Below, piece after piece: positions 6,289 through 9,506 of a DNA stretch of 45,159 bases. Every line of letters begins with the position of its first letter. The stretch's first letter is position 1. The notes beneath the pieces are model-generated. The model had not been told where the DNA came from and searched no databases. It saw nothing but the letters and a program-made list of their open reading frames with translations. Where the stretch lies: contig PXTG01000107.1 of assembly GCA_003023365.1 (NCBI GenBank), forward strand, positions 1 through 45,159. The letters are read 5' to 3'. This DNA is from Bacteroidetes bacterium QH_7_62_13. Lineage in GTDB: Bacteria > Bacteroidota > Rhodothermia > Rhodothermales > Salinibacteraceae. Position numbers and translations under genes: made by a program.

Positions 6289-7452
6289 CTACGCCCCCGC
6301 GTAGTGATGTTGGAGGAGAGTGGAGAGAACGGAAAGAGGAACGGTCCGGAGGCTGTGCTGAGAGCCCGGAATCACCGACAGGCGGGCGTGGGGGAGCTGC
6401 CGGTGGAGGGACTGGGCGCCGTCGAGGGGGAACAGCGGATCCTCGTCCATGGCCGTAACGAGGGTCGGATGCGCGACGGCCCCGAGGGTGTTCATCGCGG
6501 TCTCGGATTTCTCGGGGAGGCGGGCGATGAACGACCGAAGGGCCGGAAAAAGTCGATCGGGGTGCTCGTGCTGGTTGAGCAAGGCGTCGGCACGCCCCGG
6601 ATCTCGTTCGCGGAGGGTTTCGAGGTTGAGACGAGCGTTCATGGCGTCGGCGAGGGCCTCCGTCCACACGAGATTTGGGCTTAGCAGGGCGAGGCGATCC
6701 ACGCGGTTCGGGGCCGTGTGGGCGGCCTGAAGGGCGACGGAGGCGCCCAGTGAGAAGCCGAAGACGTGAGCGGAGGAGACGTCGACGGCGTCTAGTCCTG
6801 CGAGAGCGTCCTGCGCGAATCGCTCAAGGGTCAGTGTATCGTCGGGGGGAAGGGAGGAGGCCCCGTGGCCGCTCAGGTCCACGCCGATCACGTGGAACGA
6901 GGGTTCCAGCCGACGCATGAGCGGGGCAGTATCTGCGCGGGTGCTGCCCGCGGCGCCGTGCAGTAGGAGGACCGACGGGCGATCCCGGCGTCCCCGTTCG
7001 TACACCCCAAGCTGTCCGTCCCGATGCGGGACACGGGTGGGCGACCAATCGGAAGCCGTTGATTCACAAAACTCGACCAGGACGCCGTGGGTCTCTTTCG
7101 GGTGCACAAAGAAAATCTGTTTCTCGTCGGCCCCCGACTGGGGCGTTTCGCTCAGGAGCGTGAAGTCGGCCTCCCGGAGGCGGGCCATCGTTGCCGTCGC
7201 GTCCTCTACTTCAAACGCGAGATGATGCAGTCCCTCGCCTTGGTTGTCGAGGAACTTTTGCACCGGCGAGTCCGGGCCGAGGGCCTCAAGGAGTTCGAGT
7301 TTCGCCGATTTTCCATTCAAGAAATGCGTGCGGACCTGCTGGTCGGTCACGGTTTCGGCCTTGTAGGGGCGTGCACCGAGCAGCTCCTGGAAGCAGTCAA
7401 TGACCGCCTCGACGTCCTTAACCGCCACGCCGACGTGCTCAAGTCTAAGCAT
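6289..7452 (-). CDS. Fusion: methylmalonyl-CoA epimerase + alpha/beta hydrolase
   Basis: A 387-residue two-domain protein. Residues 1-133 are a VOC-fold methylmalonyl-CoA epimerase: LEHVGVAV (metal ligand H6), EGLHHLAFEV (H76/H77) and VLVEF (E127) match the family's metal ligands. Residues about 141-387 are a complete alpha/beta hydrolase: oxyanion motif HGAAGS (165-170), nucleophile elbow GFSLG with S234, an acidic residue at D336/D338 and GSQHS with H366. The two are joined by only about eight residues. The epimerase half converts (S)- and (R)-methylmalonyl-CoA; the hydrolase half might act on a CoA thioester or ester, which is inference. No internal stop or frameshift is visible in the frame. 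An artefactual fusion of adjacent genes is possible given lesions elsewhere in the window. Confidence 0.88.
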   Translation of the reverse strand: MLRLEHVGVAVKDVEAVIDCFQELLGARPYKAETVTDQQVRTHFLNGKSAKLELLEALGPDSPVQKFLDNQGEGLHHLAFEVEDATATMARLREADFTLLSETPQSGADEKQIFFVHPKETHGVLVEFCESTASDWSPTRVPHRDGQLGVYERGRRDRPSVLLLHGAAGSTRADTAPLMRRLEPSFHVIGVDLSGHGASSLPPDDTLTLERFAQDALAGLDAVDVSSAHVFGFSLGASVALQAAHTAPNRVDRLALLSPNLVWTEALADAMNARLNLETLRERDPGRADALLNQHEHPDRLFPALRSFIARLPEKSETAMNTLGAVAHPTLVTAMDEDPLFPLDGAQSLHRQLPHARLSVIPGSQHSLRTVPLSVLSTLLQHHYAGA

Positions 7453-8583: not shown

Positions 8584-8619
8584 CGCATGAAGGGCACGAA
8601 TAGGCGTGCCCCTCATGCG
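8584..8619. terminator. Strong hairpin between convergent genes
   Basis: A near-perfect inverted repeat: CGCATGA-a-GGGCACG, a six-base loop, then CGTGCCC-c-TCATGCG. It lies between the stop of the CDF gene and the 3' end of mdh, where a bidirectional terminator is expected. There is no long T run on either side, so it may act with Rho or as an mRNA 3'-end stabiliser. Confidence 0.6.
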
Positions 8620-9506
8620 TCTCGACGGCCGGTTCGCAGGGATCCCTTATCCGATTTCGCCGGCGTCCCGAAGGCGCTGTAGGTCATCGAGGTTGCTGTG
8701 GACGTGCTCGGCGGAGGTGTCGAGCTTTCGAGGCCGTATTCGCCATCGCAGTACGCCGCGGCCGGAAGGATGCGCTTGTTGTCCTTGATGATGGCTTCCG
8801 TCATTTCGGCGGCCGCGGCACCGGGCGCGTACCAGGCGGAGGTGCCCATGAGGTCCACGATCTCGCCCCCGCCCCCCTTCGTCCGCTCCACGATGTCGGT
8901 GATGGCGCTGTCGTCAAGCCACTGGGTGAGCGGAATGCCGCCGATGGTCGTGTACCGGGGGAGGGGCACCATGGTGTCGCCGTGTCCGCCCATGAGGAGC
9001 GCCTGGATGTCTCGGACCGACACGTCCAGCTCCTCGGCGATGAAGGACCGGTAGCGGGCCGTGTCGAGCACGCCGGCCATGCCCATCACCCGGTTGGCGG
9101 GGAAGCCGCTCGCCTCGTAGGCCACGTACGTCATCACGTCGAGGGGGTTGGCCACAACGATGATCGTACTGTCCGGACTGCCGTCTACGAACTGTTCCGT
9201 GACCCCGCCGACGATTTCCGTGTTCTTGGCGAGCAGGTCGTCGCGGCTCATGCCGGGACTACGTGGCAGGCCCGCGGTGATGATGCAGACGTCCGAGTCT
9301 TCCGTGGGGCCGTAGTCGTTGGTGCCGGTAACGGTGGTGTCGAAGCCGTGGACCGGGCCCGACTCCATCATGTCCAGGCCCTTGCCCTGGGGCATGCCTT
9401 CTTTGATGTCGACCATCACAACCTCGCCGACCATATCCTTCTGGGCGACGCAGTCCGCTACGGTGGCGCCGACATTTCCGGCCCCGATAACGGTTACTTT
9501 TTGCAT
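8613..9506 (-). CDS. mdh: Malate dehydrogenase with a deleted and frameshifted C-terminus
   Basis: NAD-dependent malate dehydrogenase of the LDH-like type, converting malate and oxaloacetate in the TCA cycle. Residues 1-260 are normal: GAGNVG (8-13), D33 for NAD, substrate loop GLPRSPGMSRDD with R82 and R88, VANPLD, and GGHGDTMVP with catalytic H175. After CDGEYGLE the frame turns into a Ser/Thr/Pro-rich tail unlike any MDH. The true C-terminus, a peptide including LDTSAEHVHSNLDDLQ and ending at a TAA at 8647-8649, is present in another frame. So about 30 codons (the strand and loop with the usual FIGVPV block) plus a non-multiple of three are missing near 8737. Either a pseudogene or an assembly error. 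Confidence 0.85.
   Translation of the reverse strand: MQKVTVIGAGNVGATVADCVAQKDMVGEVVMVDIKEGMPQGKGLDMMESGPVHGFDTTVTGTNDYGPTEDSDVCIITAGLPRSPGMSRDDLLAKNTEIVGGVTEQFVDGSPDSTIIVVANPLDVMTYVAYEASGFPANRVMGMAGVLDTARYRSFIAEELDVSVRDIQALLMGGHGDTMVPLPRYTTIGGIPLTQWLDDSAITDIVERTKGGGGEIVDLMGTSAWYAPGAAAAEMTEAIIKDNKRILPAAAYCDGEYGLESSTPPPSTSTATSMTYSAFGTPAKSDKGSLRTGRRDA

What the first reader, a model, noticed from the sequence alone, without database searches (positions are those of the whole stretch)
6289..7452. Single-ORF fusion of methylmalonyl-CoA epimerase and alpha/beta hydrolase
The epimerase part is complete with its metal ligands (H6, H76/H77, E127), and the hydrolase part is complete with S234, D336/D338 and H366. 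They are joined by only about eight residues. Methylmalonyl-CoA epimerase is normally a free-standing protein of about 130-150 residues. A fused hydrolase could act on a CoA thioester in the propionate/methylmalonyl pathway or in proof-reading; this function is inference. The window has deletions elsewhere, so an artefactual fusion must be excluded.
Basis: partly seen in the sequence, partly recalled or inferred. Interest (0 to 1): 0.68.

Follow-up and report, generated by a model that had tools for sequence, protein, structure and literature searches.

The report
Methylmalonyl-CoA epimerase fused to serine hydrolase
In Salinibacter and related bacteria the enzyme that flips methylmalonyl-CoA during propionate breakdown is fused to a second, apparently working serine hydrolase; the fusion is real and old, and in several sister groups the hydrolase half has decayed into an inactive remnant, so it looks like a useful but dispensable partner of unknown substrate.

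Summary
The 387-residue ORF at 6289..7452 (-) is real. Residues 2-129 are a bona fide methylmalonyl-CoA epimerase (NCBIfam TIGR03081, above its cut-off). Residues ~139-387 are a complete lidded alpha/beta-hydrolase. An assembly artefact is excluded: the same two-domain ORF occurs in 37 genomes of the same GTDB order, some on few-contig assemblies, at 40-64% identity. No relative with two adjacent genes was seen. In 34 of 34 full-length fusions the epimerase ligands (H6, H77, E127) and the hydrolase H165, S234, D338, H366, W263 and H295 are invariant, and the hydrolase half is under purifying selection. The fusion is the genome's only epimerase and occurs with methylmalonyl-CoA mutase.

In the alignable cases this is the same hydrolase with the lid deleted and the active site lost. 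An rpoB tree suggests at least three independent inactivations. Some members have lost the tail altogether, and Rhodothermus-like genomes lack the epimerase.

Best reading: an epimerase plus an accessory, dispensable serine hydrolase. Thioester proof-reading is possible but unproven. No description of this architecture was found in the open papers searched.

The parts
6289..7452 (-). Fused gene: methylmalonyl-CoA epimerase / alpha-beta hydrolase, 387 aa
   Evidence: Single open frame; full-length homologues in 37 genomes
7060..7452 (-). Epimerase domain, residues 1-131 (metal ligands H6, H77, E127; also E53)
   Evidence: TIGR03081 133.8 bits; alignment to human MCEE with ligands from PMC6525113; invariant in 34/34
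7039..7059 (-). Inter-domain linker, residues 132-138
   Evidence: Between strand 125-131 and strand 139-143 of the predicted model
6292..7038 (-). Alpha/beta-hydrolase domain, residues 139-387: His165 (oxyanion region), Ser234, Asp338, His366
   Evidence: Pfam; invariant in 34/34; structural match to valacyclovir hydrolase Z 31.4
6475..6681 (-). Lid (cap) region, residues 258-326, with invariant W263 and H295; the part deleted in the decayed orthologues
   Evidence: Helical insertion in the model; W263/H295 34/34; reduced from 68 to 7-14 residues in 18 of 18 alignable tails

Best explanation
This is one polypeptide with two independent active sites. Residues 1-131 are the cell's only methylmalonyl-CoA epimerase: a metal-dependent VOC-fold enzyme that interconverts (R)- and (S)-methylmalonyl-CoA so that the B12-dependent mutase can make or use succinyl-CoA. 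Residues 139-387 are a lidded serine hydrolase with a Ser234-Asp338-His366 triad; it most probably hydrolyses a small ester or thioester by the usual acyl-enzyme route. The fusion arose once, near the base of this order. The hydrolase is an accessory activity: retained under selection in six families, but inactivated (active site lost together with the lid) in at least three lineages that still need the epimerase. Its likeliest job is clean-up around the propionyl/methylmalonyl-CoA node, for example hydrolysing an off-pathway acyl-CoA. Shown by sequence: the fusion, intact sites, conservation, constraint, co-occurrence with the mutase, decay elsewhere. Inferred: catalytic activity of each half. 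Guess: the substrate.
For: Epimerase family above cut-off with all ligands. It is the only TIGR03081 match over cut-off in each genome; MCM is present in its own genome and in nearly all epimerase-bearing genomes. Genomes with no MCM hit (G344, G336, G365, G376) are incomplete MAGs of 62-87%. Rhodothermus-like genomes (7) lack the epimerase, and their only mutase matches lie in ~1160-aa frames, unlike canonical ~720-aa MCM. Hydrolase triad, His165 and lid residues W263/H295 are invariant in 34/34 fusions from six families; dN/dS of that half is 0.09-0.35. Predicted fold is confident and matches solved serine hydrolases. Tails elsewhere are homologous (hmmsearch E 1e-7 to 1e-22 for f3, f4, f9, G315; iterated profile adds f5, f7, f51), with Ser/His/oxyanion-His motifs lost and the lid deleted. 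The rpoB tree places dead forms in at least three places among active ones.
Against: No activity has been measured for either half. There is no operon link to mutase or carboxylase: neighbours are a cation-efflux gene and an aldo/keto reductase, or uvrC and genes read as spmA/B in sister families. The epimerase-domain tree alone does not reject one clade of decayed forms (AU p 0.42), so transfer rather than repeated loss is possible. 'Clean-up' is not directly supported by anything beyond the fusion partner.
Confidence: 0.5

Rival explanations
1. The hydrolase half is active but has nothing to do with methylmalonyl-CoA: a general esterase or lactonase that became fused by read-through between neighbouring genes and is kept for its own substrate.
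For: Closest named families are diverse ester/C-C hydrolases at 20-25% identity; free-standing relatives reach only about 33% identity over most of the domain and are of unknown function; no operon link to the pathway; repeated loss while the epimerase stays.
Against: Long conservation of the fusion across several families without re-splitting; no adjacent free-standing hydrolase found by the domain query within 1.5 kb of the outgroup epimerase genes examined, so no trace of a pre-fusion gene pair.
Confidence: 0.3
2. The C-terminal domain mainly has a structural or regulatory role for the epimerase (solubility, oligomerisation, substrate entry); catalysis was secondary, which is why lid-less, site-less versions persist.
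For: Tails of 115-195 residues remain fused and constrained (dN/dS 0.13-0.51 in f3 and f54) although catalytically dead.
Against: In 34 fusions the complete catalytic apparatus is invariant, which a purely structural domain would not need; in other members (G179, G304, several f5) the tail is gone altogether.
Confidence: 0.17
3. The ORF is an artefactual fusion from missing sequence at the junction.
For: The same window has a real-looking deletion with frameshift in the nearby malate dehydrogenase gene.
Against: The same layout, with 34-42 residues from E127 to H165 (38 in 25 of 34), is in 37 genomes including few-contig assemblies.
Confidence: 0.01

Closest known systems
Methylmalonyl-CoA epimerase (TIGR03081; solved: human MCEE 3rmu, 6wf6, Mycobacterium tuberculosis 6bu2, 1jc4)
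   Same: Full-length family match above cut-off, same metal ligands, sole epimerase with mutase in the genome
   Different: Known members are free-standing proteins of about 130-150 residues; this one carries a second enzyme domain
Human valacyclovir hydrolase / BPHL (2ocg)
   Same: Best structural match of the hydrolase half (Z 31.4, 2.2 A over 246 residues), Ser-Asp-His triad, lidded fold
   Different: 23% identity; BPHL neutralises the alpha-amino group of its substrates with D123 (PMC4198189), the residue after the nucleophile S122, where the fusion has Leu/Met/Phe, so alpha-amino-ester specificity is not expected
Intracellular PHB depolymerase PhaZ (8ynv)
   Same: Best sequence-profile match in the PDB (E 2.4e-26)
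   Different: Only 5 of 114 genomes of the order have any PhaC_N match, most of them partial, so PHB turnover is an unlikely role
meta-cleavage product hydrolases / PcaD / esterase YbfF
   Same: Same lidded alpha/beta-hydrolase class, hits
   Different: All scores far below the curated cut-offs of PcaD, BphD, HsaD, RutD and others

Membership tests
Methylmalonyl-CoA epimerase (TIGR03081) | Score above the curated equivalog cut-off, full profile length | tested here: met
   133.8 vs 114.95 bits, profile 1-129/129
Methylmalonyl-CoA epimerase (TIGR03081) | Metal ligands His, His, Glu | tested here: met
   H6, H77, E127 align with human His50/His122/Glu172, 34/34 conserved
Methylmalonyl-CoA epimerase (TIGR03081) | Works with methylmalonyl-CoA mutase in the same cell | tested here: met
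   MCM in own genome at C38; canonical mutase and epimerase both missing in Rhodothermus-like genomes. Co-occurrence only, not an assay.
Methylmalonyl-CoA epimerase (TIGR03081) | Epimerase activity | not testable with these tools
   Needs assay
Lidded alpha/beta-hydrolase (Abhydrolase_1 / serine hydrolase) | Family score above gathering cut-off | tested here: met
   93.1 vs 25.8 bits
Lidded alpha/beta-hydrolase (Abhydrolase_1 / serine hydrolase) | Nucleophile elbow G-x-S-x-G, acid, His in order | tested here: met
   G232-F-S234-L-G236, D338, H366, invariant
Valacyclovir hydrolase (BPHL) | Acidic residue after the nucleophile that reads the alpha-amino group | tested here: not met
   Position 235 is M/L/F in 34/34; D123 role from PMC4198189
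PHB depolymerase (PhaZ) | Host makes PHA (PhaC present) | tested here: not met
   PhaC_N in 5 of 114 genomes, not in own (incomplete) genome or in G147
CoA thioesterase (any) | Hydrolysis of an acyl-CoA | not testable with these tools

The most novel reading that the evidence does not exclude
The hydrolase is a dedicated methylmalonyl-CoA-node thioesterase physically coupled to the epimerase (a clearing or proof-reading valve), and its dead, lid-less descendants in sister families have become non-catalytic modulators of the epimerase: an enzyme-to-pseudoenzyme series within one orthologous gene.
Probability: 0.15. Interest if true: 0.65.

Novelty: new variant of a known kind. Interest (0 to 1): 0.42.

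Why it matters
Fusions often point to linked functions, and methylmalonyl-CoA epimerase is otherwise a small, free-standing enzyme in everything examined here outside this order. This gives a concrete candidate for an unrecognised activity at the propionate/methylmalonyl-CoA node. The graded series within one order (intact hydrolase, lid-less dead tail, no tail, no epimerase) is a natural experiment on how a fused enzyme domain is lost.

Tried and rejected
Artefact at the junction: rejected by 37 genomes. Two adjacent genes in relatives: none seen. PHB depolymerase role: disfavoured by near-absence of PHA synthase. Alpha-amino-ester hydrolase (BPHL-like) specificity: disfavoured by residue 235. 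Operon evidence for a shared pathway: none. The first rpoB tree had five rows in a wrong reading frame and was discarded; repeated correctly. Pfam on seven tails alone recognised a hydrolase in only two, so the homology rests on profile comparison. Tails of G361, G183, G362, G364 and G311 could not be shown to be hydrolase remnants, and f54 is borderline. Structures of the decayed tails were not predicted because those loci are outside the stated rule of the tool. Paper searches for an epimerase fusion, for methylmalonyl-CoA hydrolase and for YbfF thioesterase activity gave nothing relevant.

Full report
Observation. The minus-strand ORF 6289..7452 codes for 387 residues without a stop. Its N-terminal part matches the methylmalonyl-CoA epimerase equivalog TIGR03081 over the full profile, above its cut-off, and its closest solved relatives by sequence include human and bacterial epimerases. 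Its C-terminal part matches Abhydrolase_1/6. AlphaFold2 on an alignment of 12 fusions gives a confident two-domain model (pLDDT 90, pTM 0.79) with a linker of about seven residues. The hydrolase half matches human valacyclovir hydrolase best (Z 31.4, 2.2 A, about 246 residues); Foldseek finds epimerase-type structures for the other half (6bu2, 3oa4).

Ligands and triad. By alignment with human MCEE, whose metal ligands are His50, His122 and Glu172 (PMC6525113), the ligands are H6, H77 and E127. H76 is conserved but not the aligned ligand. The hydrolase has S234 in GFSLG, H366, and D338 as the probable acid. All of these, plus H165, D336 and the lid residues W263 and H295, are identical in 34 of 34 full-length fusions.

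Is it real? The genome is an incomplete MAG (62% complete, 118 contigs). The same layout is found in 37 genomes of the order at about 40-64% identity, including G147, whose main contig has 3,551,823 bases (which I recall as the size of the S. ruber DSM 13855 chromosome), and other few-contig assemblies. Three of the 37 are cut by contig ends or a run of N (G350, G332, G324). Relatives with two separate adjacent genes were not seen. A scan of contigs of 84,980 species with the hydrolase domain found 14 related loci: 13 carry the epimerase in the same frame and one (L118) is cut at a contig edge. In 296 genomes drawn from the phylum, listed matches outside the order covered only the epimerase part.

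Pathway context. The fusion is the only protein over the TIGR03081 cut-off among the listed matches in the genomes that have it. MCM is present in the window's genome (C38) and in nearly all genomes with an epimerase; the four genomes without an MCM hit are incomplete. Seven Rhodothermus-like genomes (f2) have no epimerase above cut-off, and their only mutase matches lie in ~1160-aa frames, probably IcmF-like fused mutases (names by inference). The gene is not in an operon with mutase or carboxylase. In Salinibacter it lies between a divergent cation-efflux gene and an aldo/keto reductase; in several sister families it is followed by uvrC and two small genes that I read as spmA/spmB. The shared upstream neighbour supports orthology across many of the families.

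The decayed forms. In families f3, f4, f5, f7, f9, f51, f54 and one genome of f11 the orthologue has about 240-330 residues: the epimerase plus a tail. A profile of the 34 intact hydrolase domains finds the tails of f4, f9 and G315 (E 1e-13 to 1e-22) and f3 (E 1e-7 to 1e-8), with matching segments on both sides of the lid and nothing in it. hhalign gives probability 99.8 for f4/f9/G315 and 93.7 for f3. A profile that includes these finds f5 (G363, G366), f7 and two f51 tails above the best of 1,700 shuffled tails (11.2 bits); f54 is borderline. In all 18 alignable tails the lid is reduced from 68 to 7-14 residues and the oxyanion His, nucleophile elbow and catalytic His are lost; f3 keeps a Ser at the nucleophile column but in no G-x-S-x-G motif. 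Tails of f3 and f54 still show dN/dS below 1 (0.13-0.51), higher than their epimerase halves (0.03-0.17); intact hydrolases show 0.09-0.35. These are pairwise Nei-Gojobori estimates and rough. Other members (G179, G304, several f5) have no tail.

How often? An rpoB tree (58 rows, rooted on other Bacteroidota) puts intact fusions in f10+f53, f1, f6 and f11, and dead or lost forms in f3, in G315 inside f11, and in one large group of f54, f2, f8, f9, f7, f4, f51 and f5. With one gain of the fusion and vertical descent this needs at least three losses of the active site. The short epimerase domain alone neither supports nor rejects a single clade of decayed forms (AU p 0.42), and some deep branches are weakly supported, so the number is a best estimate.

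Mechanism. Shown by sequence: two complete enzyme domains in one chain, long conservation, constraint, co-occurrence with the mutase, decay elsewhere. Inferred: the epimerase half works as in characterised epimerases; the hydrolase half is an active serine hydrolase. Guess: its substrate. The lidded fold is compatible with small esters or thioesters. Two specific roles were tested and disfavoured: alpha-amino-ester hydrolysis as in BPHL (residue after the nucleophile is M/L/F, not Asp; PMC4198189) and PHB depolymerisation (PHA synthase nearly absent). The repeated loss shows the hydrolase is not required for the epimerase or pathway to persist.

Novelty. The domains are known; the combination, its restriction as far as seen to one order, and its graded decay were not found described in the papers searched. 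I class it as a new variant of a known kind.

Noticed in passing
window 8613-9506 (-): Malate dehydrogenase with a deletion and frameshift near its end: after GEYGLE about 31 residues present in a sister (L044) are missing and the true C-terminus (DTSAEHVHSNLDD...) continues in another frame. Natural or assembly error not determined.
   Followed up: partly
Rhodothermus-like genomes G003, G008, G050, G058, G155, G319, G320: No methylmalonyl-CoA epimerase; their only MM-CoA mutase family matches lie in frames of about 1160 aa (probably IcmF-like).
   Followed up: partly
L105 (G325): A divergent free-standing epimerase (143 aa, 41% identity) in a family (f10) whose other members carry the fusion; likely replacement.
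   Followed up: no
families f10 and f53 (G231, G316-G318, G322, G323, G325, G326): MM-CoA mutase large subunits in frames of 530-640 aa, possibly with a separate B12-binding subunit, unlike the ~720-aa form in f1.
   Followed up: no
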